Shown: one piece after another, positions 7,910 through 64,000 of the stretch
Layout of the letters: each line of letters begins with the position of its first letter
Numbering within the stretch: the stretch's first letter is position 1
DNA from: Limnomonas spitsbergensis
Lineage: Eukaryota; Chlorophyta; Chlorophyceae; Chlamydomonadales
DNA: 64,000 nt
NCBI GenBank assembly: GCA_037349105.1
Contig: JAYJMM010000118.1
Location: forward strand, 3,653,501-3,717,500
Direction of reading: 5' to 3'
Program-made: the position numbers and the translations under genes
Notes under the pieces: model-generated
Told to the model about the DNA's origin: nothing
The model's database searches: none
What the model saw: only the letters and a program-made list of their open reading frames with translations

Positions 7910-8707
7910 GTATGTCGGCAAAGAGGGGCACTCGCCTGAAACAACTAATATGCCCTGAGGTGTGGATAAGGGGAGCCATCTGTTCGGCTGTAGCACGAGG
8001 TAGGCTACTATGCTGATGCTGATTCTGGAGCTGATGTTGATGTTGGTGCTGGTGACGATGCTGATGCTGACATTGCTACTTGTGCTGGTGCTGATGCTGA
8101 TGCTGATTCCAGTCTCATGTCGATGCCAATGCTCAGGCTCAGCCTCACCTTCAACCTTGAATACCTGAGCCCCACACCTTCAGCCCTACTCTGATGTGAC
8201 CTTGAACCTACGTTCCCAGGGGCTAGTCTATCAAGAAATTCTTGACCCTAAATCCTTGACCCTAAAGCAAATTTGCCTTCACCCGTTTTGTCTGATGTAC
8301 ATCCTGGTGTGGAACTGGGTCAACAATATTACGCACGTCCTGATGTACAACATGATGTACAACCATACAAATTGATTTGTTCTTCGGCAGGTATTTTTCC
8401 TGATGGCCTGGCGCAGCAGCTGGGCTTACCATGGTTACTTCAGCTGTTGAGGTCCTTCTGTTCAGTGCTGGTGGTGTGCTGGCAACAACGGCGGCAGCGG
8501 CCTCATCTGCCCCTTTCGTCTCCAACTCAGAGGGCTGGGCCCTCCCACCAGGCCAAGGACCTCTAAGTTGATCGGAGGCCAGCTGCTAGGCCATCCTTGC
8601 CGTCCTGAGGGGTCTGATGCTAGCTGAGGGCCTGCCAGCAAGGTACGTCGGCAAAGAGGGGCACTCGCCTGAAACAACTAAAATGCCCTGAGGTGTGGAT
8701 AAAGGGA

Positions 8708-20500: not shown

Positions 20501-23500
20501 ACCTTGAATACCTGAGCCCCACACCTTCAGCCCTACTCTGATGTGACCTTGAACCTACGTTCCCAGGGGCTAGTCTATCAAGAAATTCTTGACCCTAAAT
20601 CCTTGACCCTAAAGCAAATTTGCCTTCACCCGTTTTGTCTGATGTACATCCTGGTGTGGAACTGGGTCAACAATATTACGCACGTCCTGATGTACAACAT
20701 GATGTACAACCATACAAATTGATTTGTTCTTCGGCAGGTATTTTTCCTGATGGCCTGGCGCAGCAGCTGGGCTTACCATGGTTACTTCAGCTGTTGAGGT
20801 CCTTCTGTTCAGTGCTGGTGGTGTGCTGGCAACAACGGCGGCAGCGGCCTCATCTGCCCCTTTCGTCTCCAACTCAGAGGGCTGGGCCCTCCCACCAGGC
20901 CAAGGACCTCTAAGTTGATCGGAGGCCAGCTGCTAGGCCATCCTGGCCGTCCTGAGGGGTCTGATGCTAGCGGAGGGCCTGCCAGCAAGGTATGTCGGCA
21001 AAGAGGGGCACTCGCCTGAAACAACTAATATGCCCTGAGGTGTGGATAAAGGGAACCATCTGTTCGGCTGTAGCACGAGGTAGGCTACTATGCTGATGTT
21101 GATTCTGGAGCTGATGTTGATGTTGGTGCTGGTGATGATTCTGATGCTGACATTGCTACTTGTGCTGGTGCTGATGCTGATGCTGATTCCAGTCTCATGT
21201 CGATGCCAATGCTCAGGCTCAGCCTCACCTTCAACCTTGAATACCTGAGCCCCACACCTTCAGCCCTACTCTGATGTGACCTTGAACCTACGTTCCCAAG
21301 GGCTGGACTGTCAAGAAATTCTTGACCCTAAATCCTTGACCCTAAAGCAAAATTTTCATCACCCGTTTTGTCTGATGTACATCCTGGTGTGGAACTGGGT
21401 CAACAATAGTACGCACATCCTGATGTACAACATGATGTTCAACCATACGAATTGATTTGTTTTTCCGCAGGTATTTTTCCTGATGGCCTGGTGCATCAGC
21501 AAGGCTTGCCATGGTTACTTCAGCTGCTGCTGTCCTTCTGTTCAGTGCTGGTGGCGTGCTAGCAACAACGGTGGCAGCGGCCTCATCTGCCCCTTTCGTC
21601 TCCAACTCGGAGGGCTGGGCCCTCTCACCAGGCCAAGGACCTCTAAGTTGATCGGAGGCCAGCTGCTAGGCCATCCTTGCCGTCCTGAGGGGTCTGATGC
21701 TAGCGGAGGGCCTGCCAGCAAGGTATGTCGGCAAAGAGGGGCACTCGCCTGAAAAAACGAATATGCCCTGAGGTGTGGATAAAGGGAGCCATCTGTTCGG
21801 CTGTAGCACTAGGTAGGCTACTATGCTGATGCTGATTCTGGAGCTGATGTTGATGTTGGTGCTGGTGATGATGCTGATGCTGACATTGCTACGTGTGCTG
21901 GTGCTGATGCTGATGCTGACATTGCTACGTGTGCTGGTGCTGATGCTGATGCTGATTCCAGTCTCATGTCGATGCCAATGCTCAGGCTCAGCCTCACCTT
22001 CAACCTTGAATACCTGAGCCCCACACCTTCAGCCCTACTCTGATGTGACCTTGAACCTACGTTCCCAGGGGCTGGACTGTCAATAATTTATTGACCCTAC
22101 ATGTCTGGTGTGGAAGTGGGTCAACAATATTACGCACATCCTGATGTACAACATGATGTACAACCATACAAATTGATTTGTTCTTCCGCAGGTATTTTAC
22201 CTGTTGGCCTGGTGCAGCAGCTGGGCTTGCCATGGTTACTTCAGCTGCTGCTGTCCTTCTGTTTAGTGCTGGTGGCGTGCTGCCAACAACGGCGGCAGCG
22301 GCCCCATCTGCCCCTTTCGTCTCCAACTCAGAGGGCTGGGCCCTCCCACCAGGCCAAGGACCTCCAAGTTGATCGGAGGCCAGCTGCTAGGCCATCCTGG
22401 CCGTCCTGAGGGGTCTGATGCTAGCAGAGGGCCTGCCAGCAAGGTATGTCGGCAAAGAGGGGCACTCGCCTGAAACAACTAATATGCCCTGAGGTGTGGA
22501 TAAGGGGAGCCATCTGTTCGGCTGTAGCACGAGGTAGGCTACTATGCTGATGCTGATTCTGGAGCTGATGTTGATGTTGGTGCTGGTGACGATGCTGATG
22601 CTGACATTGCTACTTGTGCTGGTGCTGATGCTGATGCTGATTCCAGTCTCATGTCGATGCCAATGCTCAGGCTCAGCCTCACCTTCAACCTTGAATACCT
22701 GAGCCCCACACCTTCAGCCCTACTCTGATGTGACCTTGAACCTACGTTCCCAGGGGCTAGTCTATCAAGAAATTCTTGACCCTAAATCCTTGACCCTAAA
22801 GCAAATTTGCCTTCACCCGTTTTGTCTGATGTACATCCTGGTGTGGAACTGGGTCAACAATATTACGCACGTCCTGATGTACAACATGATGTACAACCAT
22901 ACAAATTGATTTGTTCTTCGGCAGGTATTTTACCTGATGGCCTGGCGCAGCAGCTGGGCTTACCATGGTTACTTCAGCTGTTGAGGTCCTTCTGTTCAGT
23001 GCTGGTGGTGTGCTGGCAACAACGGCGGCAGCGGCCTCATCTGCCCCTTTCGTCTCCAACTCAGAGGGCTGGGCCCTCCCACCAGGCCAAGGACCTCTAA
23101 GTTGATCGGAGGCCAGCTGCTAGGCCATCCTGGCCGTCCTGAGGGGTCTGATGCTAGCGGAGGGCCTGCCAGCAAGGTATGTCGGCAAAGAGGGGCACTC
23201 GCCTGAAACAACTAATATGCCCTGAGGTGTGGATAAAGGGAACCATCTGTTCGGCTGTAGCACGAGGTAGGCTACTATGCTGATGCTGATTCTGGAGCTG
23301 ATGTTGATGTTGGTGCTGGTGATGATTCTGATGCTGACATTGCTACTTGTGCTGGTGCTGATGCTGATGCTGATTCCAGTCTCATGTTGATGCCAATGCT
23401 CAGGCTCAGCCTCACCTTCAACCTTGAATACCTGAGCCCCACACCTTCAGCCCTACTCTGATGTGACCTTGAACCTACGTTCCCAAGGGCTGGACTGTCA

Positions 23501-26500
23501 AGAAATTCTTGACCCTAAATCCTTGACCCTAAAGCAACATTTTCATCACCCGTTTTGTCTGATGTACATCCTGGTGTGGAACTGGGTCAACAATAGTACG
23601 CACATCCTGATGTACAACATGATGTTCAACCATACGAATTGATTTGTTTTTCCGCAGGTATTTTTCCTGATGGCCTGGTGCATCAGCAAGGCTTGCCATG
23701 GTTACTTCAGCTGCTGCTGTCCTTCTGTTCAGTGCTGGTGGCGTGCTAGCAACAACGGTGGCAGCGGCCTCATCTGCCCCTTTCGTCTCCAACTCGGAGG
23801 GCTGGGCCCTCTCACCAGGCCAAGGACCTCTAAGTTGATCGGAGGCCAGCTGCTAGGCCATCCTTGCCGTCCTGAGGGGTCTGATGCTAGCGGAGGGCCT
23901 GCCAGCAAGGTATGTCGGCAAAGAGGGGCACTCGCCTGAAAAAACGAATATGCCCTGAGGTGTGGATAAAGGGAGCCATCTGTTCGGCTGTAGCACTAGG
24001 TAGGCTACTATGCTGATGCTGATTCTGGAGCTGATGTTGATGTTGGTGCTGGTGATGATGCTGATGCTGACATTGCTACGTGTGCTGGTGCTGATGCTGA
24101 TGCTGACATTGCTACGTGTGCTGGTGCTGATGCTGATGCTGATTCCAGTCTCATGTCGATGCCAATGCTCAGGCTCAGCCTCACCTTCAACCTTGAATAC
24201 CTGAGCCCCACACCTTCAGCCCTACTCTGATGTGACCTTGAACCTACGTTCCCAGGGGCTGGACTGTCAATAATTTATTGACCCTACATGTCTGGTGTGG
24301 AAGTGGGTCAACAATATTACGCACATCCTGATGTACAACATGATGTACAACCATACAAATTGATTTGTTCTTCCGCAGGTATTTTACCTGTTGGCCTGGT
24401 GCAGCAGCTGGGCTTGCCATGGTTACTTCAGCTGCTGCTGTCCTTCTGTTTAGTGCTGGTGGCGTGCTGCCAACAACGGCGGCAGCGGCCCCATCTGCCC
24501 CTTTCGTCTCCAACTCAGAGGGCTGGGCCCTCCCACCAGGCCAAGGACCTCCAAGTTGATCGGAGGCCAGCTGCTAGGCCATCCTGGCCGTCCTGAGGGG
24601 TCTGATGCTAGCAGAGGGCCTGCCAGCAAGGTATGTCGGCAAAGAGGGGCACTCGCCTGAAACAACTAATATGCCCTGAGGTGTGGATAAGGGGAGCCAT
24701 CTGTTCGGCTGTAGCACGAGGTAGGCTACTATGCTGATGCTGATTCTGGAGCTGATGTTGATGTTGGTGCTGGTGACGATGCTGATGCTGACATTGCTAC
24801 TTGTGCTGGTGCTGATGCTGATGCTGATTCCAGTCTCATGTCGATGCCAATGCTCAGGCTCAGCCTCACCTTCAACCTTGAATACCTGAGCCCCACACCT
24901 TCAGCCCTACTCTGATGTGACCTTGAACCTACGTTCCCAGGGGCTAGTCTATCAAGAAATTCTTGACCCTAAATCCTTGACCCTAAAGCAAATTTGCCTT
25001 CACCCGTTTTGTCTGATGTACATCCTGGTGTGGAACTGGGTCAACAATATTACGCACGTCCTGATGTACAACATGATGTACAACCATACAAATTGATTTG
25101 TTCTTCGGCAGGTATTTTACCTGATGGCCTGGCGCAGCAGCTGGGCTTACCATGGTTACTTCAGCTGTTGAGGTCCTTCTGTTCAGTGCTGGTGGTGTGC
25201 TGGCAACAACGGCGGCAGCGGCCTCATCTGCCCCTTTCGTCTCCAACTCAGAGGGCTGGGCCCTCCCACCAGGCCAAGGACCTCTAAGTTGATCGGAGGC
25301 CAGCTGCTAGGCCATCCTGGCCGTCCTGAGGGGTCTGATGCTAGCGGAGGGCCTGCCAGCAAGGTATGTCGGCAAAGAGGGGCACTCGCCTGAAACAACT
25401 AATATGCCCTGAGGTGTGGATAAAGGGAACCATCTGTTCGGCTGTAGCACGAGGTAGGCTACTATGCTGATGCTGATTCTGGAGCTGATGTTGATGTTGG
25501 TGCTGGTGATGATTCTGATGCTGACATTGCTACTTGTGCTGGTGCTGATGCTGATGCTGATTCCAGTCTCATGTTGATGCCAATGCTCAGGCTCAGCCTC
25601 ACCTTCAACCTTGAATACCTGAGCCCCACACCTTCAGCCCTACTCTGATGTGACCTTGAACCTACGTTCCCAAGGGCTGGACTGTCAAGAAATTCTTGAC
25701 CCTAAATCCTTGACCCTAAAGCAACATTTTCATCACCCGTTTTGTCTGATGTACATCCTGGTGTGGAACTGGGTCAACAATAGTACGCACATCCTGATGT
25801 ACAACATGATGTTCAACCATACGAATTGATTTGTTTTTCCGCAGGTATTTTTCCTGATGGCCTGGTGCATCAGCAAGGCTTGCCATGGTTACTTCAGCTG
25901 CTGCTGTCCTTCTGTTCAGTGCTGGTGGCGTGCTAGCAACAACGGTGGCAGCGGCCTCATCTGCCCCTTTCGTCTCCAACTCGGAGGGCTGGGCCCTCTC
26001 ACCAGGCCAAGGACCTCTAAGTTGATCGGAGGCCAGCTGCTAGGCCATCCTTGCCGTCCTGAGGGGTCTGATGCTAGCGGAGGGCCTGCCAGCAAGGTAT
26101 GTCGGCAAAGAGGGGCACTCGCCTGAAAAAACGAATATGCCCTGAGGTGTGGATAAAGGGAGCCATCTGTTCGGCTGTAGCACTAGGTAGGCTACTATGC
26201 TGATGCTGATTCTGGAGCTGATGTTGATGTTGGTGCTGGTGATGATGCTGATGCTGACATTGCTACGTGTGCTGGTGCTGATGCTGATGCTGACATTGCT
26301 ACGTGTGCTGGTGCTGATGCTGATGCTGATTCCAGTCTCATGTCGATGCCAATGCTCAGGCTCAGCCTCACCTTCAACCTTGAATACCTGAGCCCCACAC
26401 CTTCAGCCCTACTCTGATGTGACCTTGAACCTACGTTCCCAGGGGCTGGACTGTCAATAATTTATTGACCCTACATGTCTGGTGTGGAAGTGGGTCAACA

Positions 26501-29069
26501 ATATTACGCACATCCTGATGTACAACATGATGTACAACCATACAAATTGATTTGTTCTTCCGCAGGTATTTTACCTGTTGGCCTGGTGCAGCAGCTGGGC
26601 TTGCCATGGTTACTTCAGCTGCTGCTGTCCTTCTGTTTAGTGCTGGTGGCGTGCTGGCAACAACGGCGGCAGCGGCCCCATCTGCCCCTTTCGTCTCCAA
26701 CTCAGAGGGCTGGGCCCTCCCACCAGGCCAAGGACCTCCAAGTTGATCGGAGGCCAGCTGCTAGGCCATCCTGGCCGTCCTGAGGGGTCTGATGCTAGCA
26801 GAGGGCCTGCCAGCAAGGTATGTCGGCAAAGAGGGGCACTCGCCTGAAACAACTAATATGCCCTGAGGTGTGGATAAGGGGAGCCATCTGTTCGGCTGTA
26901 GCACGAGGTAGGCTACTATGCTGATGCTGATTCTGGAGCTGATGTTGATGTTGGTGCTGGTGACGATGCTGATGCTGACATTGCTACTTGTGCTGGTGCT
27001 GATGCTGATGCTGATTCCAGTCTCATGTCGATGCCAATGCTCAGGCTCAGCCTCACCTTCAACCTTGAATACCTGAGCCCCACACCTTCAGCCCTACTCT
27101 GATGTGACCTTGAACCTACGTTCCCAGGGGCTAGTCTATCAAGAAATTCTTGACCCTAAATCCTTGACCCTAAAGCAAATTTGCCTTCACCCGTTTTGTC
27201 TGATGTACATCCTGGTGTGGAACTGGGTCAACAATATTACGCACGTCCTGATGTACAACATGATGTACAACCATACAAATTGATTTGTTCTTCGGCAGGT
27301 ATTTTTCCTGATGGCCTGGCGCAGCAGCTGGGCTTACCATGGTTACTTCAGCTGTTGAGGTCCTTCTGTTCAGTGCTGGTGGTGTGCTGGCAACAACGGC
27401 GGCAGCGGCCTCATCTGCCCCTTTCGTCTCCAACTCAGAGGGCTGGGCCCTCCCACCAGGCCAAGGACCTCTAAGTTGATCGGAGGCCAGCTGCTAGGCC
27501 ATCCTGGCCGTCCTGAGGGGTCTGATGCTAGCGGAGGGCCTGCCAGCAAGGTATGTCGGCAAAGAGGGGCACTCGCCTGAAACAACTAATATGCCCTGAG
27601 GTGTGGATAAAGGGAACCATCTGTTCGGCTGTAGCACGAGGTAGGCTACTATGCTGATGTTGATTCTGGAGCTGATGTTGATGTTGGTGCTGGTGATGAT
27701 TCTGATGCTGACATTGCTACTTGTGCTGGTGCTGATGCTGATGCTGATTCCAGTCTCATGTTGATGCCAATGCTCAGGCTCAGCCTCACCTTCAACCTTG
27801 AATACCTGAGCCCCACACCTTCAGCCCTACTCTGATGTGACCTTGAACCTACGTTCCCAAGGGCTGGACTGTCAAGAAATTCTTGACCCTAAATCCTTGA
27901 CCCTAAAGCAACATTTTCATCACCCGTTTTGTCTGATGTACATCCTGGTGTGGAACTGGGTCAACAATAGTACGCACATCCTGATGTACAACATGATGTT
28001 CAACCATACGAATTGATTTGTTTTTCCGCAGGTATTTTTCCTGATGGCCTGGTGCATCAGCAAGGCTTGCCATGGTTACTTCAGCTGCTGCTGTCCTTCT
28101 CTTCAGTGCTGGTGGCGCGCTAGCAACAACGGTGGCAGCGGCCTCATCTGCCCCTTTCGTCTCCAACTCGGAGGGCTGGGCCCTCTCACCAGGCCAAGGA
28201 CCTCTAAGTTGATCGGAGGCCAGCTGCTAGGCCATCCTTGCCGTCCTGAGGGGTCTGATGCTAGCGGAGGGCCTGCCAGCAAGGTATGTCGGCAAAGAGG
28301 GGCACTCGCCTGAAAAAACGAATATGCCCTGAGGTGTGGATAAAGGGAGCCATCTGTTCGGCTGTAGCACTAGGTAGGCTACTATGCTGATGCTGATTCT
28401 GGAGCTGATGTTGATGTTGGTGCTGGTGATGATGCTGATGCTGACATTGCTACGTGTGCTGGTGCTGATGCTGATGCTGACATTGCTACGTGTGCTGGTG
28501 CTGATGCTGATGCTGATTCCAGTCTCATGTCGATGCCAATGCTCAGGCTCAGCCTCACCTTCAACCTTGAATACCTGAGCCCCACACCTTCAGCCCTACT
28601 CTGATGTGACCTTGAACCTACGTTCCCAGGGGCTGGACTGTCAATAATTTATTGACCCTACATGTCTGGTGTGGAAGTGGGTCAACAATATTACGCACAT
28701 CCTAATGTACAACATGATGTACAACCATACAAATTGATTTGTTCTTCCGCAGGTATTTTACCTGTTGGCCTGGTGCAGCAGCTGGGCTTGCCATGGTTAC
28801 TTCAGCTGCTGCTGTCCTTCTGTTCAGTGCTGGTGGCGTGCTGCCAACAACGGCGGCAGCGGCCCCATCTGCCCCTTTCGTCTCCAACTCAGAGGGCTGG
28901 GCCCTCCCACCAGGCCAAGGACCTCCAAGTTGATCGGAGGCCAGCTGCTAGGCCATCCTGGCCGTCCTGAGGGGTCTGATGCTAGCAGAGGGCCTGCCAG
29001 CAAGGTATGTCGGCAAAGAGGGGCACTCGCCTGAAACAACTAATATGCCCTGAGGTGTGGATAAGGGGA
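11571..29069. repeat. Higher-order repeat: A1-A2-B trimer, eight copies
   Basis: Twenty-four consecutive monomers follow the fixed order A1 (733), A2 (733), B (721), giving a period of 2187 bp (2187-2189). Trimers start at 11571, 13758, 15948, 18135, 20322, 22509, 24696 and 26883. A1 is marked by CAGCTGTTGAGGTCC and a CGGCAG before the conserved block; A2 by TGCATCAGCAAGGC; B by ACATGTCTGGTGTGGAAGTGG split across its junction and loss of the CCCTAAA segment. The three types differ clearly from each other, while the same type in successive trimers is nearly identical, which is the definition of higher-order satellite organisation. Confidence 0.93.
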
Positions 29070-32000
29070 GCCATCTGTTCGGCTGTAGCACGAGGTAGGC
29101 TACTATGCTGATGCTGATTCTGGAGCTGATGTTGATGTTGGTGCTGGTGACGATGCTGATGCTGACATTGCTACTTGTGCTGGTGCTGATGCTGATGCTG
29201 ATTCCAGTCTCATGTCGATGCCAATGCTCAGGCTCAGCCTCACCTTCAACCTTAAATACCTGAGCCCCACACCTTCAGCCCTACTCTGATGTGACCTTGA
29301 ACCTACGTTCCCAGGGGCTAGTCTATCAAGAAATTATTGACCCTAAATCCTTGACCCTAAAGCAAATTTGCCTTCACCCGTTTTGTCTGATGTACATCCT
29401 GGTGTGGAACTGGGTCAACAATATTACGCACGTCCTGATGTACAACATGATGTACAACCATACAAATTGATTTGTTCTTCGGCAGGTATTTTTCCTGATG
29501 GCCTGGCGCAGCAGCTGGGCTTACCATGGTTACTTCAGCTGTTGAGGTCCTTCTGTGCAGTGCTGGTGGCGTGCTGCCAACAACGGCGGCAGCGGCCCCA
29601 TCTGCCCCTTTCGTCTCCAACTCAGAGGGCTGGGCCCTCCCACCAGGCCAAGGACCTCAAAGTTGATCGGAGGCCAGCTGCTAGGCCATCCTGGCCGTCC
29701 TGAGGGGTCTGATGCTAGCGGAGGGCCTGCCAGCAAGGTATGTCGGCAAAGAGGGGCACTCGCCTGAAACAACTAATATGCCCTGAGGTGTGGATAAGGG
29801 GAGCCATCTGTTCGGCTGTAGCACGAGGTAGGCTACTATGCTGATGCTGATTCTGGAGCTGATGTTGATGTTGGTGCTGGTGATGATGCTGATGCTGACA
29901 TTGCTACGTGTGCTGGTGCTGATGCTGATGCTGACATTGCTACGTGTGCTGGTGCTGATGCTGATGCTGATTCCAGTCTCATGTCGATGCCAATGCTCAG
30001 GCTCAGCCTCACCTTCAACCTTGAATACCTGAGCCCCACACCTTCAGCCCTACTCTGATGTGACCTTGAACCTACGTTCCCAGGGGCTGGACTGTCAATA
30101 ATTTATTGACCCTACATGTCTGGTGTGGAAGTGGGTCAACAATATTACGCACATCCTAATGTACAACATGATGTACAACCATACAAATTGATTTGTTCTT
30201 CCGCAGGTATTTTACCTGTTGGCCTGGTGCAGCAGCTGGGCTTGCCATGGTTACTTCAGCTGCTGCTGTCCTTCTGTTCAGTGCTGGTGGCGTGCTGCCA
30301 ACAACGGCGGCAGCGGCCCCATCTGCCCCTTTCGTCTCCAACTCAGAGGGCTGGGCCCTCCCACCAGGCCAAGGACCTCCAAGTTGATCGGAGGCCAGCT
30401 GCTAGGCCATCCTGGCCGTCCTGAGGGGTCTGATGCTAGCAGAGGGCCTGCCAGCAAGGTATGTCGGCAAAGAGGGGCACTCGCCTGAAACAACTAATAT
30501 GCCCTGAGGTGTGGATAAGGGGAGCCATCTGTTCGGCTGTAGCACGAGGTAGGCTACTATGCTGATGCTGATTCTGGAGCTGATGTTGATGTTGGTGCTG
30601 GTGACGATGCTGATGCTGACATTGCTACTTGTGCTGGTGCTGATGCTGATGCTGATTCCAGTCTCATGTCGATGCCAATGCTCAGGCTCAGCCTCACCTT
30701 CAACCTTAAATACCTGAGCCCCACACCTTCAGCCCTACTCTGATGTGACCTTGAACCTACGTTCCCAGGGGCTAGTCTATCAAGAAATTATTGACCCTAA
30801 ATCCTTGACCCTAAAGCAAATTTGCCTTCACCCGTTTTGTCTGATGTACATCCTGGTGTGGAACTGGGTCAACAATATTACGCACGTCCTGATGTACAAC
30901 ATGATGTACAACCATACAAATTGATTTGTTCTTCGGCAGGTATTTTTCCTGATGGCCTGGCGCAGCAGCTGGGCTTACCATGGTTACTTCAGCTGTTGAG
31001 GTCCTTCTGTTCAGTGCTGGTGGCGTGCTGCCAACAACGGCGGCAGCGGCCCCATCTGCCCCTTTCGTCTCCAACTCAGAGGGCTGGGCCCTCCCACCAG
31101 GCCAAGGACCTCAAAGTTGATCGGAGGCCAGCTGCTAGGCCATCCTGGCCGTCCTGAGGGGTCTGATGCTAGCGGAGGGCCTGCCAGCAAGGTATGTCGG
31201 CAAAGAGGGGCACTCGCCTGAAACAACTAATATGCCCTGAGGTGTGGATAAGGGGAGCCATCTGTTCGGCTGTAGCACGAGGTAGGCTACTATGCTGATG
31301 CTGATTCTGGAGCTGATGTTGATGTTGGTGCTGGTGACGATGCTGATGCTGACATTGCTACTTGTGCTGGTGCTGATGCTGATGCTGATTCCAGTCTCAT
31401 GTCGATGCCAATGCTCAGGCTCAGCCTCACCTTCAACCTTAAATACCTGAGCCCCACACCTTCAGCCCTACTCTGATGTGACCTTGAACCTACGTTCCCA
31501 GGGGCTAGTCTATCAAGAAATTATTGACCCTAAATCCTTGACCCTAAAGCAAATTTGCCTTCACCCGTTTTGTCTGATGTACATCCTGGTGTGGAACTGG
31601 GTCAACAATATTACGCACGTCCTGATGTACAACATGATGTACAACCATACAAATTGATTTGTTCTTCGGCAGGTATTTTTCCTGATGGCCTGGCGCAGCA
31701 GCTGGGCTTACCATGGTTACTTCAGCTGTTGAGGTCCTTCTGTGCAGTGCTGGTGGCGTGCTGCCAACAACGGCGGCAGCGGCCCCATCTGCCCCTTTCG
31801 TCTCCAACTCAGAGGGCTGGGCCCTCCCACCAGGCCAAGGACCTCAAAGTTGATCGGAGGCCAGCTGCTAGGCCATCCTGGCCGTCCTGAGGGGTCTGAT
31901 GCTAGCGGAGGGCCTGCCAGCAAGGTATGTCGGCAAAGAGGGGCACTCGCCTGAAACAACTAATATGCCCTGAGGTGTGGATAAGGGGAGCCATCTGTTC

Positions 32001-53139: not shown

Positions 53140-53219
53140 ATGACATTACAAGTATGGGCCATGTTGAAATGAAGCTCAGCTATGTCGGCAAATAGAGAGA
53201 CACAGGGTTGTTACCGGGG

Positions 53220-54970
53220 TCAGCCATATGGCCGGTTTTTGCCGGGCTGGGGATTCCTTTTTGGTCGGCTGCGCCGGCCGGGGGGTCTGAGAATGGCCGG
53301 CAGGTGTGGACGGATTTTTTTTTCCACGTTTTTTTTTACATTTTTCTTAAATTGTCTAACAGTGCTCCTAAGCAGGTGAATAAGAAGCAAATCGTCCTCG
53401 TCAGAATCGTAAGGATCAACCGGTGGGGGAGCACCAACAGGTGTCTCAACTAGTTCCGGCTCCCCATCACCATCCTCCACATGAACACCAGCGGCCAAAT
53501 CCATGCCCAAAAGCTGGGTAGTAATACCATTCATTTCCTCGTGTGGAGGTGGAAAACTCGAAAGTGGAGGTGGAAAACTCGAACTCATGCTTGATGCCAT
53601 TGAAGGTCTTCGGACTACAACCCATAATCACACTCTGACAGTAACAAAGACAAGGACCCCTTCTTTGACTCTAAATCACAATCAGGCTCGCCCTCTTCAT
53701 GAAGTGAGGTATAACATATGATGCGGCTTTTCGCAACCTTGACATGCTCGCTAACATGGTGTGGCATGAGGCTATCTAACTGGAGCTGCTTGCTCAAACC
53801 TCAATGGGATCCAAGAGATCTTTAAGAAGGAACAAGGTAGCCACAAAATACTGACTCTCCAACATTTTCAGCATGAGCCTAGCCCACTCTGCGGTTTCCG
53901 ACTTAGCTTCAAGGAAGAGCTGAAACGGCATCATATTGCACGTTAAACAATAATGCATTGCATCCTACTGAACCAACGAGTGGTATTGAATAAAGGAAAC
54001 TTAAGCCTTGTGACATTAAAAGCAGATGCAAACACTTCCCATGCGCCTTGGCGCTTACTGTTGCAGAAAATAAAGTGAACACCTTTTAAACAGGCGTCCA
54101 CTTATTGGAAAAGCTTCAGCTTCTGGACTGAAGACATCACTAAATTGCATCTGTGGGAGACGCAATAGACAGCGAGCATGAAGGGGATTTTTACCTTCAA
54201 TTTCACAGCCACACCGTTCACCCTCCCACAGAATACAGCAGCGCCATCTGAGCAGAAGCCCGCCATTTTCTGGGGATCCAAGCCCAAACACTTGAACAGT
54301 AGAAAAATAACTGATAAAATATCGTCGGCAGTTGAGGCAACTACCTGCACGCAGCAGAGGGCTGCATGGTGGCTGCTAACGTTACGGGGTTTATATACTG
54401 GATGTAGACGAGGAGGTGGTCTTGCGTTCCCACGTCGGTGCTGCTGTCGGTCACATTGTCGCGTAGGATCAGCCGGCCTTCATTTTCCCCTTACATACAT
54501 CTCCACACACCGCCCAGTCCTTGTGCAAGGCTTTGTCCAGCCACTTGGCGAGAAGGCTGTTTGAGGCAGCAGTCTTGGTCGGCTTTCTTGACTGCACGCA
54601 CGATTCGAGATGAAATCGATTAACTTCGAGAATCGAATCAAGCGTACAAAAACGAGTCAATTTAGGGACGCACCGTGTCCACCGGAGCCGCGTTGGTTTG
54701 AGCTGATGTATGAGCTTCGTCAGGCGGTGGGGGACCTTCGCCGGGCTGCGGTGTTGGCTGATGTGCTGCAGACCGCGTTAGCCAAGACATGAGGTTGCCT
54801 GATCTTGTTATCTTCGCAGGAGGTGGGTCTGTTCTTACTTCAACGTCAGGCATCATCTCCATATCGCCATCAAAGTTAGTGTTCGCCATTTCAATGATGT
54901 ATGATTTAGCCGGGGAGCCTTGTGAGAATATGAAAAAAAACCGGCTGACGCCGGGGGCAGAGGCGGCCAA
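53220..54970 (-). pseudogene. Broken hAT transposase gene of hAT-2 (ZNF862/KRBA2-like)
   Basis: Reading on the minus strand from the right end. An N-terminal segment (54970-54662; a likely start is the methionine at about 54889, MANTNFDG) is followed, after a frame change, by 54660-54469 (KWLDKALHKDWAVC). A stretch of about 54465-54340 contains RDNVTDSSTDVGTQDHLLVY, and 54350-54102 carries the strongest signature, GFCSDGAAVFCGRVNGV and CVSHRCNLV. These match the core of animal ZNF862/KRBA2-like and related hAT transposases (D-G-A...G...H-C-x-x-H-R). Further segments include TTRWFSR near 53975 and YFVATLFLLKDLLDP near 53840, then a proline-rich, acidic tail (53600-53220). At least four frame changes or stops break the gene; some could be introns but most look like decay. 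No clear hAT dimerisation domain is seen at the left end. Confidence 0.8.
53540..53586. repeat. 21-bp tandem duplication in hAT-2
   Basis: GTGGAGGTGGAAAACTCGAA occurs twice in direct succession, giving a repeated SFPPP peptide in the minus-strand transposase remnant. A small local duplication inside the decaying gene. Confidence 0.75.
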
Positions 54971-55135
54971 ACCCCCATTTCCGCCGCCGCCGCCTTCGGC
55001 CCATTTCCCCGGCGCCGGCCCCGGAGTAACAACCCTGGAGAGACAACTAAGAAATTAAAGGGAGAAGGCGTAGGGAGAAAAACATAATAACAAGTTCACC
55101 CACGAAACAAACAGAAGCCAAGGCCCGTTTAGCGC

Positions 55136-55200
55136 TACCATGGGATTAAGTGTTGCCACGGGATTTCTAGTGATACCACGGGAATTCTCAGCGATGCCAC
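55136..55200. repeat. Minisatellite remnant right of hAT-2 (in every 1327-bp unit)
   Basis: CCATGGGATTAAGTG, CCACGGGATTTCTAGTG, CCACGGGAATTCTCAGCG and GCCACGTG are diverged copies of the 18-bp minisatellite that lies left of hAT-2. They begin about 90 bp beyond the right target duplication and recur at 1327-bp steps through the array. Confidence 0.8.
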
Positions 55201-55478
55201 GTGCTTACATCCACATGATGCCCCACACTTTATCCACATGCTCCTCATGCATAGACATGCTCACATATTCTCCATCCCTAGGCAAATGTTGATATATTGG
55301 GGACCCTCCGCACGATCTTTTCTCGCTCTATGGTCATGTTTGTGCATGGTGCCCCGTCCTCTAAACCCTATTTGAAGATTTTGAGTCAAACGTACGTTCT
55401 CTAGAGAGTGAGAGAAAGAGTAAGAGGGTTGTTCGACCAACTGATGTTTTAAAATGAGTGATAGGTGTTAATGACCAG

Positions 55479-55552
55479 GGTTGGCAGAGTGGGGATCGAA
55501 CCCGCCACCTGCGTGCCTGCCACGGACGGCAAGTAGACAAACTACACATGTC
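55479..55552 (-). ncRNA. tRNA-like (SINE-type) segment, unit 1
   Basis: On the minus strand GGGTTCGATCCC (55492-55503) is a near-perfect pol III B box / T-arm. Upstream, TGTGTAGTTTGTCTACTTG (55530-55548) resembles a degenerate A box, followed by a TTGCC...GGCAG hairpin like an anticodon arm. The A-to-B spacing of about 26 nt is short for a tRNA. A complete acceptor stem cannot be drawn, so this is more likely a tRNA-derived SINE head or tRNA pseudogene than a working tRNA. Confidence 0.45.
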
Positions 55553-55621
55553 ATGTTTCCTCAATATTTTCAAAATTTAAGAGGTCGGGCATTCCAGATA
55601 TAATTAATACTCATTAGGAGT

Positions 55622-55649
55622 AACTGATAAAATATAACTGATAAAATAT
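55622..55649. repeat. 14-bp duplication at the unit seam
   Basis: AACTGATAAAATAT is present twice in a row at the junction of units 1 and 2 (55622-55635 and 55636-55649) and at every later seam. At the left edge of the array, in hAT-2 at 54309, it occurs once. It marks the breakpoint of the founding tandem duplication. Confidence 0.9.
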
Positions 55650-56805
55650 CGTCGGCAGTTGAGGCAACTACCTGCACGCAGCAGAGGGCTGCATGGTGGC
55701 TGCTAACGTTACGGGGTTTATATACTGGATGTAGACGAGGAGGTGGTCTTGCGTTCCCACGTCGGTGCTGCTGTCGGTCACATTGTCGCGTAGGATCAGC
55801 CGGCCTTCATTTTCCCCTTACATACATCTCCACACACCGCCCAGTCCTTGTGCAAGGCTTTGTCCAGCCACTTGGCGAGAAGGCTGTTTGAGGCAGCAGT
55901 CTTGGTCGGCTTTCTTGACTGCACGCACGATTCGAGATGAAATCGATTAACTTCGAGAATCGAATCAAGCGTACAAAAACGAGTCAATTTAGGGACGCAC
56001 CGTGTCCACCGGAGCCGCGTTGGTTTGAGCTGATGTATGAGCTTCGTCAGGCGGTGGGGGACCTTCGCCGGGCTGCGGTGTTGGCTGATGTGCTGCAGAC
56101 CGCGTTAGCCAAGACATGAGGTTGCCTGATCTTGTTATCTTCGCAGGAGGTGGGTCTGTTCTTACTTCAACGTCAGGCATCATCTCCATATCGCCATCAA
56201 AGTTAGTGTTCGCCATTTCAATGATGTATGATTTAGCCGGGGAGCCTTGTGAGAATATGAAAAAAAACCGGCTGACGCCGGGGGCAGAGGCGGCCAAACC
56301 CCCATTTCCGCCGCCGCCGCCTTCGGCCCATTTCCCCGGCGCCGGCCCCGGAGTAACAACCCTGGAGAGACAACTAAGAAATTAAAGGGAGAAGGCGTAG
56401 GGAGAAAAACATAATAACAAGTTCACCCACGAAACAAACAGAAGCCAAGGCCCGTTTAGCGCTACCATGGGATTAAGTGTTGCCACGGGATTTCTAGTGA
56501 TACCACGGGAATTCTCAGCGATGCCACGTGCTTACATCCACATGATGCCCCACACTTTATCCACATGCTCCTCATGCATAGACATGCTCACATATTCTCC
56601 ATCCCTAGGCAAATGTTGATATATTGGGGACCCTCCGCACGATCTTTTCTCGCTCTATGGTCATGTTTGTGCATGGTGCCCCGTCCTCTAAACCCTATTT
56701 GAAGATTTTGAGTCAAACGTACGTTCTCTAGAGAGTGAGAGAAAGAGTAAGAGGGTTGTTCGACCAACTGATGTTTTAAAATGAGTGATAGGTGTTAATG
56801 ACCAG

Positions 56806-56879
56806 GGTTGGCAGAGTGGGGATCGAACCCGCCACCTGCGTGCCTGCCACGGACGGCAAGTAGACAAACTACACATGTC
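56806..56879 (-). ncRNA. tRNA-like segment, unit 2
   Basis: Copy of the unit 1 segment; the B-box-like GGGTTCGATCCC lies at 56819-56830. Confidence 0.43.
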
Positions 56880-58132
56880 ATGTTTCCTCAATATTTTCAA
56901 AATTTAAGAGGTCGGGCATTCCAGATATAATTAATACTCATTAGGAGTAACTGATAAAATATAACTGATAAAATATCGTCGGCAGTTGAGGCAACTACCT
57001 GCACGCAGCAGAGGGCTGCATGGTGGCTGCTAACGTTACGGGGTTTATATACTGGATGTAGACGAGGAGGTGGTCTTGCGTTCCCACGTCGGTGCTGCTG
57101 TCGGTCACATTGTCGCGTAGGATCAGCCGGCCTTCATTTTCCCCTTACATACATCTCCACACACCGCCCAGTCCTTGTGCAAGGCTTTGTCCAGCCACTT
57201 GGCGAGAAGGCTGTTTGAGGCAGCAGTCTTGGTCGGCTTTCTTGACTGCACGCACGATTCGAGATGAAATCGATTAACTTCGAGAATCGAATCAAGCGTA
57301 CAAAAACGAGTCAATTTAGGGACGCACCGTGTCCACCGGAGCCGCGTTGGTTTGAGCTGATGTATGAGCTTCGTCAGGCGGTGGGGGACCTTCGCCGGGC
57401 TGCGGTGTTGGCTGATGTGCTGCAGACCGCGTTAGCCAAGACATGAGGTTGCCTGATCTTGTTATCTTCGCAGGAGGTGGGTCTGTTCTTACTTCAACGT
57501 CAGGCATCATCTCCATATCGCCATCAAAGTTAGTGTTCGCCATTTCAATGATGTATGATTTAGCCGGGGAGCCTTGTGAGAATATGAAAAAAAACCGGCT
57601 GACGCCGGGGGCAGAGGCGGCCAAACCCCCATTTCCGCCGCCGCCGCCTTCGGCCCATTTCCCCGGCGCCGGCCCCGGAGTAACAACCCTGGAGAGACAA
57701 CTAAGAAATTAAAGGGAGAAGGCGTAGGGAGAAAAACATAATAACAAGTTCACCCACGAAACAAACAGAAGCCAAGGCCCGTTTAGCGCTACCATGGGAT
57801 TAAGTGTTGCCACGGGATTTCTAGTGATACCACGGGAATTCTCAGCGATGCCACGTGCTTACATCCACATGATGCCCCACACTTTATCCACATGCTCCTC
57901 ATGCATAGACATGCTCACATATTCTCCATCCCTAGGCAAATGTTGATATATTGGGGACCCTCCGCACGATCTTTTCTCGCTCTATGGTCATGTTTGTGCA
58001 TGGTGCCCCGTCCTCTAAACCCTATTTGAAGATTTTGAGTCAAACGTACGTTCTCTAGAGAGTGAGAGAAAGAGTAAGAGGGTTGTTCGACCAACTGATG
58101 TTTTAAAATGAGTGATAGGTGTTAATGACCAG

Positions 58133-58206
58133 GGTTGGCAGAGTGGGGATCGAACCCGCCACCTGCGTGCCTGCCACGGACGGCAAGTAGACAAACTACA
58201 CATGTC
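58133..58206 (-). ncRNA. tRNA-like segment, unit 3
   Basis: Copy of the unit 1 segment; B-box-like motif at 58146-58157. Confidence 0.43.
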
Positions 58207-59459
58207 ATGTTTCCTCAATATTTTCAAAATTTAAGAGGTCGGGCATTCCAGATATAATTAATACTCATTAGGAGTAACTGATAAAATATAACTGATAAAA
58301 TATCGTCGGCAGTTGAGGCAACTACCTGCACGCAGCAGAGGGCTGCATGGTGGCTGCTAACGTTACGGGGTTTATATACTGGATGTAGACGAGGAGGTGG
58401 TCTTGCGTTCCCACGTCGGTGCTGCTGTCGGTCACATTGTCGCGTAGGATCAGCCGGCCTTCATTTTCCCCTTACATACATCTCCACACACCGCCCAGTC
58501 CTTGTGCAAGGCTTTGTCCAGCCACTTGGCGAGAAGGCTGTTTGAGGCAGCAGTCTTGGTCGGCTTTCTTGACTGCACGCACGATTCGAGATGAAATCGA
58601 TTAACTTCGAGAATCGAATCAAGCGTACAAAAACGAGTCAATTTAGGGACGCACCGTGTCCACCGGAGCCGCGTTGGTTTGAGCTGATGTATGAGCTTCG
58701 TCAGGCGGTGGGGGACCTTCGCCGGGCTGCGGTGTTGGCTGATGTGCTGCAGACCGCGTTAGCCAAGACATGAGGTTGCCTGATCTTGTTATCTTCGCAG
58801 GAGGTGGGTCTGTTCTTACTTCAACGTCAGGCATCATCTCCATATCGCCATCAAAGTTAGTGTTCGCCATTTCAATGATGTATGATTTAGCCGGGGAGCC
58901 TTGTGAGAATATGAAAAAAAACCGGCTGACGCCGGGGGCAGAGGCGGCCAAACCCCCATTTCCGCCGCCGCCGCCTTCGGCCCATTTCCCCGGCGCCGGC
59001 CCCGGAGTAACAACCCTGGAGAGACAACTAAGAAATTAAAGGGAGAAGGCGTAGGGAGAAAAACATAATAACAAGTTCACCCACGAAACAAACAGAAGCC
59101 AAGGCCCGTTTAGCGCTACCATGGGATTAAGTGTTGCCACGGGATTTCTAGTGATACCACGGGAATTCTCAGCGATGCCACGTGCTTACATCCACATGAT
59201 GCCCCACACTTTATCCACATGCTCCTCATGCATAGACATGCTCACATATTCTCCATCCCTAGGCAAATGTTGATATATTGGGGACCCTCCGCACGATCTT
59301 TTCTCGCTCTATGGTCATGTTTGTGCATGGTGCCCCGTCCTCTAAACCCTATTTGAAGATTTTGAGTCAAACGTACGTTCTCTAGAGAGTGAGAGAAAGA
59401 GTAAGAGGGTTGTTCGACCAACTGATGTTTTAAAATGAGTGATAGGTGTTAATGACCAG

Positions 59460-59533
59460 GGTTGGCAGAGTGGGGATCGAACCCGCCACCTGCGTGCCTG
59501 CCACGGACGGCAAGTAGACAAACTACACATGTC
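59460..59533 (-). ncRNA. tRNA-like segment, unit 4
   Basis: Copy of the unit 1 segment; B-box-like motif at 59473-59484. Confidence 0.43.
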
Positions 59534-60786
59534 ATGTTTCCTCAATATTTTCAAAATTTAAGAGGTCGGGCATTCCAGATATAATTAATACTCATTAGGA
59601 GTAACTGATAAAATATAACTGATAAAATATCGTCGGCAGTTGAGGCAACTACCTGCACGCAGCAGAGGGCTGCATGGTGGCTGCTAACGTTACGGGGTTT
59701 ATATACTGGATGTAGACGAGGAGGTGGTCTTGCGTTCCCACGTCGGTGCTGCTGTCGGTCACATTGTCGCGTAGGATCAGCCGGCCTTCATTTTCCCCTT
59801 ACATACATCTCCACACACCGCCCAGTCCTTGTGCAAGGCTTTGTCCAGCCACTTGGCGAGAAGGCTGTTTGAGGCAGCAGTCTTGGTCGGCTTTCTTGAC
59901 TGCACGCACGATTCGAGATGAAATCGATTAACTTCGAGAATCGAATCAAGCGTACAAAAACGAGTCAATTTAGGGACGCACCGTGTCCACCGGAGCCGCG
60001 TTGGTTTGAGCTGATGTATGAGCTTCGTCAGGCGGTGGGGGACCTTCGCCGGGCTGCGGTGTTGGCTGATGTGCTGCAGACCGCGTTAGCCAAGACATGA
60101 GGTTGCCTGATCTTGTTATCTTCGCAGGAGGTGGGTCTGTTCTTACTTCAACGTCAGGCATCATCTCCATATCGCCATCAAAGTTAGTGTTCGCCATTTC
60201 AATGATGTATGATTTAGCCGGGGAGCCTTGTGAGAATATGAAAAAAAACCGGCTGACGCCGGGGGCAGAGGCGGCCAAACCCCCATTTCCGCCGCCGCCG
60301 CCTTCGGCCCATTTCCCCGGCGCCGGCCCCGGAGTAACAACCCTGGAGAGACAACTAAGAAATTAAAGGGAGAAGGCGTAGGGAGAAAAACATAATAACA
60401 AGTTCACCCACGAAACAAACAGAAGCCAAGGCCCGTTTAGCGCTACCATGGGATTAAGTGTTGCCACGGGATTTCTAGTGATACCACGGGAATTCTCAGC
60501 GATGCCACGTGCTTACATCCACATGATGCCCCACACTTTATCCACATGCTCCTCATGCATAGACATGCTCACATATTCTCCATCCCTAGGCAAATGTTGA
60601 TATATTGGGGACCCTCCGCACGATCTTTTCTCGCTCTATGGTCATGTTTGTGCATGGTGCCCCGTCCTCTAAACCCTATTTGAAGATTTTGAGTCAAACG
60701 TACGTTCTCTAGAGAGTGAGAGAAAGAGTAAGAGGGTTGTTCGACCAACTGATGTTTTAAAATGAGTGATAGGTGTTAATGACCAG

Positions 60787-60860
60787 GGTTGGCAGAGTGG
60801 GGATCGAACCCGCCACCTGCGTGCCTGCCACGGACGGCAAGTAGACAAACTACACATGTC
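60787..60860 (-). ncRNA. tRNA-like segment, unit 5
   Basis: Copy of the unit 1 segment; B-box-like motif at 60800-60811. Confidence 0.43.
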
Positions 60861-62113
60861 ATGTTTCCTCAATATTTTCAAAATTTAAGAGGTCGGGCAT
60901 TCCAGATATAATTAATACTCATTAGGAGTAACTGATAAAATATAACTGATAAAATATCGTCGGCAGTTGAGGCAACTACCTGCACGCAGCAGAGGGCTGC
61001 ATGGTGGCTGCTAACGTTACGGGGTTTATATACTGGATGTAGACGAGGAGGTGGTCTTGCGTTCCCACGTCGGTGCTGCTGTCGGTCACATTGTCGCGTA
61101 GGATCAGCCGGCCTTCATTTTCCCCTTACATACATCTCCACACACCGCCCAGTCCTTGTGCAAGGCTTTGTCCAGCCACTTGGCGAGAAGGCTGTTTGAG
61201 GCAGCAGTCTTGGTCGGCTTTCTTGACTGCACGCACGATTCGAGATGAAATCGATTAACTTCGAGAATCGAATCAAGCGTACAAAAACGAGTCAATTTAG
61301 GGACGCACCGTGTCCACCGGAGCCGCGTTGGTTTGAGCTGATGTATGAGCTTCGTCAGGCGGTGGGGGACCTTCGCCGGGCTGCGGTGTTGGCTGATGTG
61401 CTGCAGACCGCGTTAGCCAAGACATGAGGTTGCCTGATCTTGTTATCTTCGCAGGAGGTGGGTCTGTTCTTACTTCAACGTCAGGCATCATCTCCATATC
61501 GCCATCAAAGTTAGTGTTCGCCATTTCAATGATGTATGATTTAGCCGGGGAGCCTTGTGAGAATATGAAAAAAAACCGGCTGACGCCGGGGGCAGAGGCG
61601 GCCAAACCCCCATTTCCGCCGCCGCCGCCTTCGGCCCATTTCCCCGGCGCCGGCCCCGGAGTAACAACCCTGGAGAGACAACTAAGAAATTAAAGGGAGA
61701 AGGCGTAGGGAGAAAAACATAATAACAAGTTCACCCACGAAACAAACAGAAGCCAAGGCCCGTTTAGCGCTACCATGGGATTAAGTGTTGCCACGGGATT
61801 TCTAGTGATACCACGGGAATTCTCAGCGATGCCACGTGCTTACATCCACATGATGCCCCACACTTTATCCACATGCTCCTCATGCATAGACATGCTCACA
61901 TATTCTCCATCCCTAGGCAAATGTTGATATATTGGGGACCCTCCGCACGATCTTTTCTCGCTCTATGGTCATGTTTGTGCATGGTGCCCCGTCCTCTAAA
62001 CCCTATTTGAAGATTTTGAGTCAAACGTACGTTCTCTAGAGAGTGAGAGAAAGAGTAAGAGGGTTGTTCGACCAACTGATGTTTTAAAATGAGTGATAGG
62101 TGTTAATGACCAG

Positions 62114-62187
62114 GGTTGGCAGAGTGGGGATCGAACCCGCCACCTGCGTGCCTGCCACGGACGGCAAGTAGACAAACTACACATGTC
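62114..62187 (-). ncRNA. tRNA-like segment, unit 6
   Basis: Copy of the unit 1 segment; B-box-like motif at 62127-62138. Confidence 0.43.
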
Positions 62188-63440
62188 ATGTTTCCTCAAT
62201 ATTTTCAAAATTTAAGAGGTCGGGCATTCCAGATATAATTAATACTCATTAGGAGTAACTGATAAAATATAACTGATAAAATATCGTCGGCAGTTGAGGC
62301 AACTACCTGCACGCAGCAGAGGGCTGCATGGTGGCTGCTAACGTTACGGGGTTTATATACTGGATGTAGACGAGGAGGTGGTCTTGCGTTCCCACGTCGG
62401 TGCTGCTGTCGGTCACATTGTCGCGTAGGATCAGCCGGCCTTCATTTTCCCCTTACATACATCTCCACACACCGCCCAGTCCTTGTGCAAGGCTTTGTCC
62501 AGCCACTTGGCGAGAAGGCTGTTTGAGGCAGCAGTCTTGGTCGGCTTTCTTGACTGCACGCACGATTCGAGATGAAATCGATTAACTTCGAGAATCGAAT
62601 CAAGCGTACAAAAACGAGTCAATTTAGGGACGCACCGTGTCCACCGGAGCCGCGTTGGTTTGAGCTGATGTATGAGCTTCGTCAGGCGGTGGGGGACCTT
62701 CGCCGGGCTGCGGTGTTGGCTGATGTGCTGCAGACCGCGTTAGCCAAGACATGAGGTTGCCTGATCTTGTTATCTTCGCAGGAGGTGGGTCTGTTCTTAC
62801 TTCAACGTCAGGCATCATCTCCATATCGCCATCAAAGTTAGTGTTCGCCATTTCAATGATGTATGATTTAGCCGGGGAGCCTTGTGAGAATATGAAAAAA
62901 AACCGGCTGACGCCGGGGGCAGAGGCGGCCAAACCCCCATTTCCGCCGCCGCCGCCTTCGGCCCATTTCCCCGGCGCCGGCCCCGGAGTAACAACCCTGG
63001 AGAGACAACTAAGAAATTAAAGGGAGAAGGCGTAGGGAGAAAAACATAATAACAAGTTCACCCACGAAACAAACAGAAGCCAAGGCCCGTTTAGCGCTAC
63101 CATGGGATTAAGTGTTGCCACGGGATTTCTAGTGATACCACGGGAATTCTCAGCGATGCCACGTGCTTACATCCACATGATGCCCCACACTTTATCCACA
63201 TGCTCCTCATGCATAGACATGCTCACATATTCTCCATCCCTAGGCAAATGTTGATATATTGGGGACCCTCCGCACGATCTTTTCTCGCTCTATGGTCATG
63301 TTTGTGCATGGTGCCCCGTCCTCTAAACCCTATTTGAAGATTTTGAGTCAAACGTACGTTCTCTAGAGAGTGAGAGAAAGAGTAAGAGGGTTGTTCGACC
63401 AACTGATGTTTTAAAATGAGTGATAGGTGTTAATGACCAG

Positions 63441-63514
63441 GGTTGGCAGAGTGGGGATCGAACCCGCCACCTGCGTGCCTGCCACGGACGGCAAGTAGAC
63501 AAACTACACATGTC
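63441..63514 (-). ncRNA. tRNA-like segment, unit 7
   Basis: Copy of the unit 1 segment; B-box-like motif at 63454-63465. The partial eighth unit ends before this point in the unit. Confidence 0.43.
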
Positions 63515-63870
63515 ATGTTTCCTCAATATTTTCAAAATTTAAGAGGTCGGGCATTCCAGATATAATTAATACTCATTAGGAGTAACTGATAAAATATAAC
63601 TGATAAAATATCGTCGGCAGTTGAGGCAACTACCTGCACGCAGCAGAGGGCTGCATGGTGGCTGCTAACGTTACGGGGTTTATATACTGGATGTAGACGA
63701 GGAGGTGGTCTTGCGTTCCCACGTCGGTGCTGCTGTCGGTCACATTGTCGCGTAGGATCAGCCGGCCTTCATTTTCCCCTTACATACATCTCCACACACC
63801 GCCCAGTCCTTGTGCAAGGCTTTGTCCAGCCACTTGGCGAGAAGGCTGTTTGAGGCAGCAGTCTTGGTCG

Positions 63871-64000
63871 TTACTGTTCGCCATTCCAACCGCACTCCCA
63901 CCGCATTCCCGCCGCAGCCTTTGAGAATACCGCAAAAAAACCGCTACGCCGGGGCAGACCGGCCAAACCCCCACTCCCGCCGCCGCCGCCTTCGCCATTC
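63871..64000. repeat. Diverged hAT-2-end-like sequence at the window edge
   Basis: After GTCTTGGTCG the unit sequence stops and the text continues with TTACTGTTCGCCATT, matching hAT-2 about 290 bp further on (from about 54875). It then follows the right-end landmarks (GAGAATA, AAAAAACCG, CGGCCAAACCCCCA, CCGCCGCCGCCTTCG) with many substitutions and small deletions. It may be a related, deleted hAT copy bordering the array, or a low-accuracy contig end. Confidence 0.65.

What the first reader, a model, noticed from the sequence alone, without database searches (positions are those of the whole stretch)
54309..63870. A tandem array caught at birth: a 1327-bp unit made from a hAT transposon's right part plus its flank
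The complete parent transposon, with both ends and its target duplication, sits at the left edge of the array. Each unit contains only its right part, its terminus, one copy of the target duplication and about 590 bp of neighbouring DNA. This lets the founding breakpoints be read directly, showing how a transposon insertion can seed a satellite-like array. The seven full units look identical.
Basis: partly seen in the sequence, partly recalled or inferred. Interest (0 to 1): 0.78.

Follow-up and report, generated by a model that had tools for sequence, protein, structure and literature searches.

The report
Tandem array from half a transposon
Half of an old jumping gene, together with the DNA beside it, stands head to tail in seven copies without a single difference between them; it is a clean example of a known way in which repeats arise, not a new kind of system.

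Summary
A tandem array of exact period 1327 bp runs from 54307 to 63870: seven full units plus 275 bp, 0 mismatches at 8237 compared positions. Its left edge lies inside a hAT-type element (53203-55037; 12-bp terminal repeats, GAGAGACA on both sides). Each unit is 731 bp of the element's right part, one target duplication and 588 bp of flank. Dispersed copies of the host repeat show the unoccupied site, so the insertion came first.

Three corrections. The parent is a decayed, internally deleted copy. Only one founding joint can be read: it lies inside the element and carries a 14-bp duplication, so transposon ends did not make it. The right edge is not the original flank: 275 bp into unit 8 the sequence skips 294 bp and enters a diverged copy of this element's own right end, a form found nowhere else in the readable genome. 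"Caught at birth" is therefore unproven: recent amplification or homogenisation beside an older duplicate fits too. The next 10 kb read N and no reads could be checked. Filed as a new member of a known kind: tandem duplication of transposon plus flank, expanded by unequal exchange.

The parts
53203..55037 (-). Parent hAT-type element A, 1835 bp, internally deleted and decayed; transposase remnants on the minus strand in three frames
   Evidence: 12-bp exact TIR; tblastn of the family's 841-aa stop-to-stop frame gives six pieces at 39-76% identity in three frames, with stops; family copies with 8-bp duplications
53195..53202 (.). Left target site duplication GAGAGACA
55038..55045 (.). Right target site duplication GAGAGACA; repeated once per full unit (55038, 56365, 57692, 59019, 60346, 61673, 63000)
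54307..63595 (+). Seven full identical 1327-bp units
   Evidence: 0 mismatches in each unit against unit 1
54307..55633 (+). Unit 1: element right part 54307-55037 (731 bp), target duplication 55038-55045 (8 bp), flank 55046-55633 (588 bp, of which 575 bp to 55620 are flank proper and the last 13 belong to the 14-bp patch)
63596..63870 (+). Eighth, partial unit: first 275 bp only, identical to the others
55621..55648 (+). Founding joint: flank joined to the element interior with the 14-mer TAACTGATAAAATA in two tandem copies; present at 7 of 7 joints; the parent has it once (54308) and the long family copy on C124 has the matching stretch once
63871..64000 (+). b2: diverged relative of the parent's right end (matches the parent from 54876 on; parent 54582-54875, 294 bp, skipped; one-base overlap at the joint); carries the parent's private CCGCCGCCGCCGCCTTCG form
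53140..53202 (+). Left part of host repeat X (dispersed, about 140 bp), into which the element inserted; the right part follows 55046 to about 55125 (approximate limits)
   Evidence: gap-free alignment of the joined flanks to L060, L061, L062 (80-81%), one gap away from the join in L059
52341..53140 (+). 18-bp minisatellite (CCACGGGATTCAGTGCT-like) on the left, approximate limits; a short stretch continues at about 55128-55207 in each unit's flank

Best explanation
A hAT-type element, already or later internally deleted, inserted into a copy of a small dispersed repeat and made an 8-bp target duplication (shown). Later a head-to-tail tandem duplication joined a break in the flank, 575 bp beyond the target duplication, to a break inside the element, about 731 bp from its right end; a 14-bp patch at the joint copies the edge of the element, as expected of end joining with a templated insertion or of template switching with slippage (joint shown, pathway inferred). 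The resulting direct repeat of 1.3 kb was then expanded and kept uniform by unequal exchange or gene conversion (inferred from identical units). On the right, identity stops where a 294-bp deletion breaks alignment with a diverged, probably older copy of the same element end (joint shown, order of events inferred). The transposon supplies sequence but no enzymatic step.
For: Exact period and 0 differences. Insertion first: joined flanks with one target copy match 32 listed dispersed copies of the host repeat across the join, gap-free in L060-L062. Neither the break at 54307 nor the one in the flank coincides with a transposon end. The 14-mer stands twice at 7 of 7 joints, once in the parent, and its matching stretch once in the C124 family copy. 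The unit is unique to this locus: of 51 rows for the flank, 7 are full-length and all are here, the other 44 are partial matches to the dispersed pieces; the last 261 bp give 7 matches, all here. In C. elegans, tandem duplications with insertions at the joint are reported, templated insertions are counted at deletion joints, and polymerase theta is held responsible (PMC7368036, passages seen). The neighbourhood also holds another array with a 2187-bp higher-order period (84 mismatches of 9813 at that lag in 18001-30000).
Against: A single tandem duplication predicts that the last flank copy runs on into the original downstream DNA; here all 7 flank copies run into the joint, so a further event at the right edge must be assumed. 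b2 is far more diverged from the parent than the C39 insertion is, which fits badly with b2 being a young duplicate of the parent. No reads, no second strain. Slippage after an ordinary joint would explain the 14-bp patch equally well.
Confidence: 0.55

Rival explanations
1. Two-element substrate: a second, truncated copy of the same element (B: the 275 bp plus b2) already lay about 0.6 kb downstream in the same orientation, and non-allelic homologous recombination between A and B made the array. The flank-to-element joint is then the old left edge of B, and the right end of the array is the rest of B.
For: It accounts for both edges without any lost DNA: all 7 flank copies run into the same joint and the last copy runs into a diverged element end. 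The private right-end form occurs without mismatch in 8 places, the 7 units and b2, all at this locus; 6 further hits have 3 mismatches, against 5 hits of the reversed control.
Against: B's 275 bp are identical to A while b2 is clearly diverged; a pre-existing diverged B should leave differences at the outer units unless conversion ran exactly to both ends of the homology.
Confidence: 0.22
2. A circle of 1327 bp, formed by end joining of the segment, was amplified by rolling-circle copying and re-integrated at the element by homology.
For: Identical units and one recurrent joint; rolling-circle copying is named as a route to transposon-derived arrays (PMC12628747 and PMC9659126, passages seen).
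Against: Integration by homology should leave the original downstream DNA after the last flank copy; not seen in the window. No independent sign of a circle.
Confidence: 0.08
3. Assembly error: the true locus has fewer (or more) units and the assembler repeated one or two of them.
For: No differences at all between units; copy number cannot be verified here. b2 differs from the parent by many single-base gaps, which could also mark a poorly assembled edge.
Against: The joint sequence (flank to element interior with a 14-bp patch) needs at least one true duplication; a partial eighth copy and a distinct right joint; the same assembly shows a neighbouring array with unit variants.
Confidence: 0.12
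4. Alternative (reversed-ends or sister-chromatid) transposition of hAT ends made the duplication, as known for maize Ac.
For: A hAT-type element with both ends lies at the edge; Ac makes tandem direct duplications (PMC3744419, abstract; PMC4270019, passages).
Against: Those duplication breakpoints carry 8-bp target duplications at transposon ends; here the repeat joint lies inside the element and inside the flank.
Confidence: 0.03

Closest known systems
Tandem direct duplications and composite insertions from maize Ac/Ds alternative transposition (PMC3744419, abstract; PMC4270019, passages)
   Same: A hAT element and its flank are duplicated head to tail; in PMC4270019 several internal joints show short microhomology (3, 4 and 9 bp in passages seen; one shows none)
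   Different: There the duplication ends carry target duplications at transposon termini and two elements are needed; here the joint is inside the element and the array has 7 units
Tandem arrays of transposon nests in Drosophila melanogaster high-density regions (PMC1794594, passages)
   Same: Transposon plus neighbouring DNA copied as a block by tandem duplication
   Different: Here one element half plus flank, an exact period, and the parent preserved at the edge
Satellite DNA from transposon parts by unequal exchange or NAHR (reviews PMC12628747, one section and passages; PMC9659126, passages)
   Same: Part of a DNA transposon serves in the repeat unit; expansion by unequal exchange
   Different: Seven units, found at one locus only, so not a satellite in the usual sense
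Double insertion model of McGurk and Barbash 2018 (seen only as cited and summarised in PMC12628747; the paper is not held)
   Same: Direct repeats around a transposon as substrate for expansion
   Different: No second insertion into the target duplication is seen; the flank is part of the unit

Membership tests
hAT superfamily of DNA transposons | 8-bp target site duplication | tested here: met
   Exact in 7 of 8 copies inspected (parent, C39, C119, C114, C38, C124, C70), 7 of 8 bases in C28; empty site in the dispersed host repeat. Other family copies were not inspected
hAT superfamily of DNA transposons | Short terminal inverted repeats beginning CAGGG | tested here: met
   12-bp exact TIR CAGGGTTGTTAC; that such ends are typical of hAT is recalled
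hAT superfamily of DNA transposons | hAT transposase with C-terminal dimerisation domain | tested here: inconclusive
   The parent has only remnants; the 841-aa family frame scores only a sub-cutoff zinc finger in Pfam (24.6 against 29.5 bits); its 40%-identical relative P0002 has a sub-cutoff Dimer_Tnp_hAT match (20.3 against 21.4), and 4 of the 5 relatives found are pre-annotated with PF14291, DUF4371
Satellite DNA | Long homogenised tandem array | tested here: inconclusive
   Homogeneous but only 7.2 units, 9.6 kb
Satellite DNA | Many copies or several loci in the genome | tested here: not met
   Full flank and unit end found only at this locus in the readable genome
Ac/Ds-type alternative transposition product | Repeat joint at transposon termini with 8-bp duplication | tested here: not met
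   Joint lies 731 bp inside the element and 575 bp into the flank
Polymerase-theta-type end joining product | Short templated insertion at the joint | tested here: inconclusive
   A 14-bp duplication of the element edge stands at the joint, but slippage would leave the same trace, and the enzyme is not testable here

The most novel reading that the evidence does not exclude
The array is a growing ladder of macrotransposons: the single left end of the element can pair with any of seven identical right ends, each followed by the same GAGAGACA, so seven nested composite elements of 1835 to 9797 bp (steps of 1327) all have matching ends and target duplications. If a family transposase still acts on these ends, the array could excise or move in unit steps and would carry a spreading satellite with it.
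Probability: 0.06. Interest if true: 0.65.

Novelty: new member of a known kind. Interest (0 to 1): 0.36.

Why it matters
Transposon-derived arrays are often seen long after the founding event, with the parent and the joint erased (general knowledge, not a count made here). Here the parent, its target duplication, paralogous empty sites and a founding joint are all readable at one locus, so the order insertion first, duplication later, and the type of joint can be stated from sequence. It also shows that an element can be part of a new tandem unit without its ends taking part.

Tried and rejected
Rejected: an older dispersed satellite (full flank and unit end found only here); direct action of transposon ends (joint inside the element); a tRNA or known structured RNA in the unit (ARAGORN 0 genes in 42000-64000; Rfam 0 at gathering score there; at E up to 1 over 54307-55640 one chance-level hit at 0.43). 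Left open: b2 as a separate older insertion, as an older unit, or as a poorly assembled stretch (many single-base gaps against the parent). b2 was compared with the parent and 9 family loci; identity to the parent is 65% of 118 ungapped columns in that multiple alignment, but 86% over the 91 columns that align best; both are given because they differ. My own notebook entry gives the skipped stretch as 303 bp; one search shows 294 bp, which is used here. The whole-unit genome search did not list the array itself, probably because common words are skipped; the flank searches did. Dating: 0 differences in 7 x 1327 bp gives a 95% upper bound of 3.2e-4 substitutions per site on a star model; no time is derived, because the organism and its mutation rate are not known. 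Papers: McGurk and Barbash 2018 was not held. Listings for transposon- or hAT-derived satellites were seen, for double insertion, for tandem duplication with Chlamydomonas, for theta end joining and for macrotransposons; from these I make no claim that this exact arrangement is unpublished.

Full report
OBSERVATION. The window lies at G000:C118:3653501-3717500 of a 260-Mb assembly in 124 contigs. Its right end holds an array with exact period 1327: identity at that lag is unbroken over 8237 positions, so the array runs from 54307 to 63870. Units 1 to 7 (54307-63595) are identical letter for letter; the eighth agrees for 275 bp and then departs. This is far beyond chance.

PARENT. The element that contains the left edge is 53203-55037, 1835 bp, with a 12-bp exact terminal inverted repeat and GAGAGACA on both sides. 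Its family is dispersed: a search with its left part gives 49 rows, one of them the parent itself, and a search with the unit gives 66 rows, some of which match only the flank's own repeats; a copy can fill several rows and the listings are capped, so these are not copy counts. Of the eight copies whose ends I inspected, seven have exact 8-bp duplications and one has 7 of 8 bases. Two copies (C124 and C70) are about 3.15 kb long, hold an 841-aa stop-to-stop open frame, have different target duplications and differ from each other at 2 of 3153 positions, so the family has moved recently. The parent is not such a copy: it keeps only pieces of that frame, in three frames and with stops. Membership of hAT rests on the 8-bp duplication and the ends; the protein evidence is weak, with sub-cutoff Pfam matches only and relatives pre-annotated with DUF4371.

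INSERTION CAME FIRST. When the two flanks are joined with one copy of GAGAGACA, the result matches a short dispersed repeat straight across the join. One search lists 40 rows: 7 array copies, 1 left flank and 32 dispersed copies at 78-81%, each of which spans the target site. In three of the four whose alignments I read (L060, L061, L062) there is no gap over 138-139 bp; the fourth (L059) has one gap away from the join. So the element landed inside a copy of this repeat, which itself sits beside an 18-bp minisatellite.

UNIT AND JOINT. A unit is 731 bp of the element's right part, 8 bp of target duplication and 588 bp of flank, the last 13 of which belong to the patch at the joint (575 bp are flank proper). 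The left 1104 bp of the element are not repeated in the array. At each of 7 joints the flank is followed by TAACTGATAAAATA twice and then by the element interior; the parent has this 14-mer once at 54308, and the long copy on C124 has the matching stretch once, with one base changed. A 14-bp tandem copy of the element edge at the joint is what end joining with a templated insertion, or template switching with slippage, would leave. Neither break lies at a transposon end, unlike the duplications made by Ac in maize (PMC3744419, abstract).

RIGHT EDGE. After 275 bp of unit 8 the sequence skips 294 bp of element (parent 54582-54875, with a one-base overlap) and enters 130 bp (b2) that resemble the parent's right end: 86% over the best 91 columns, alignment score 104 against at most 28 in 300 shuffles. 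b2 carries a form of the right end, CCGCCGCCGCCGCCTTCG in place of a longer stretch, that 9 of 9 other family loci compared lack. In a genome-wide pattern search this form occurs without mismatch in 8 places, the seven units and b2; six further hits have 3 mismatches, against five hits of the reversed control. b2 is therefore kin to this very element, yet far more diverged from it (65% of 118 columns in the multiple alignment) than the C39 insertion is (96% of 118 columns). All 7 flank copies run into the joint, so the original continuation of the flank is lost or beyond the window. The 10 kb beyond 64000 read N, and of the next 20 kb two blocks of 2500 bases are readable and hold no match; I did not seek the N stretch otherwise.

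READING. The simplest history is insertion, later tandem duplication with a patched joint, then expansion and homogenisation by unequal exchange up to the deletion that marks the border with b2. A rival in which a truncated second copy already lay downstream explains both edges with fewer losses but must assume conversion of 275 bp exactly to its ends. Both make the array younger than the insertion; neither lets one say that the array is newborn. The full unit flank is found nowhere else in the readable genome, so this is not a dispersed satellite.

LIMITS. No reads, no related strain and no DNA just beyond 64000. Genome searches skip very common words, so counts are lower bounds. Identical units are also what an assembly expansion would give, although the distinct right edge and the variant-bearing neighbouring array (2187-bp period, 84 mismatches of 9813) speak for a resolved assembly.

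PLACE AMONG KNOWN THINGS. Arrays made of transposon pieces and tandemly duplicated transposon nests are well described (PMC12628747, one section and passages; PMC9659126 and PMC1794594, passages). This is a new, unusually legible member. The boldest reading not excluded is that the seven identical right ends make the locus a ladder of macrotransposons; excision of a 28-kb Ac macrotransposon is reported in maize (PMC9910405, passages). I saw nothing here that shows movement of this locus.

Noticed in passing
1-48000: A second tandem array (limits approximate) with a monomer of about 730 bp containing (ATGCTG)n-like stretches, organised in places into a higher-order unit of 2187 bp that is about 99% identical over 18001-30000.
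   Followed up: partly
63877-64000: The 10-mer TTCGCCATTC occurs at 63877 and again at 63991, 114 bp apart and nowhere else on this strand of the window; b2 may be the first unit of a further, shorter tandem array that continues into unreadable DNA.
   Followed up: no
L013 4166-7318 and L014 3909-7061: Two long copies of the same hAT-type family with different 8-bp duplications differ at 2 of 3153 positions, a sign of recent transposition.
   Followed up: partly
L059-L062: The host repeat X is a short dispersed repeat of about 140-165 bp with at least 32 listed copies; its class is not known.
   Followed up: partly
55479-55550: The unit's flank holds a stretch that, read on the minus strand, looks like a tRNA T-arm (GGTTCGATCCC; recalled motif), but neither ARAGORN nor Rfam reports a tRNA.
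   Followed up: partly
G000:C1:14-828: Contig C1 begins with TTTAGGG repeats, with TTTTAGGG variants at a few places; the plant or green-alga telomere type (recalled), so at least one contig seems to reach a chromosome end.
   Followed up: no
L063 (C113): The 18-bp minisatellite and the repeat that follows it in the unit's flank stand in the same order on another contig, so that neighbourhood is itself a recurrent composite.
   Followed up: partly
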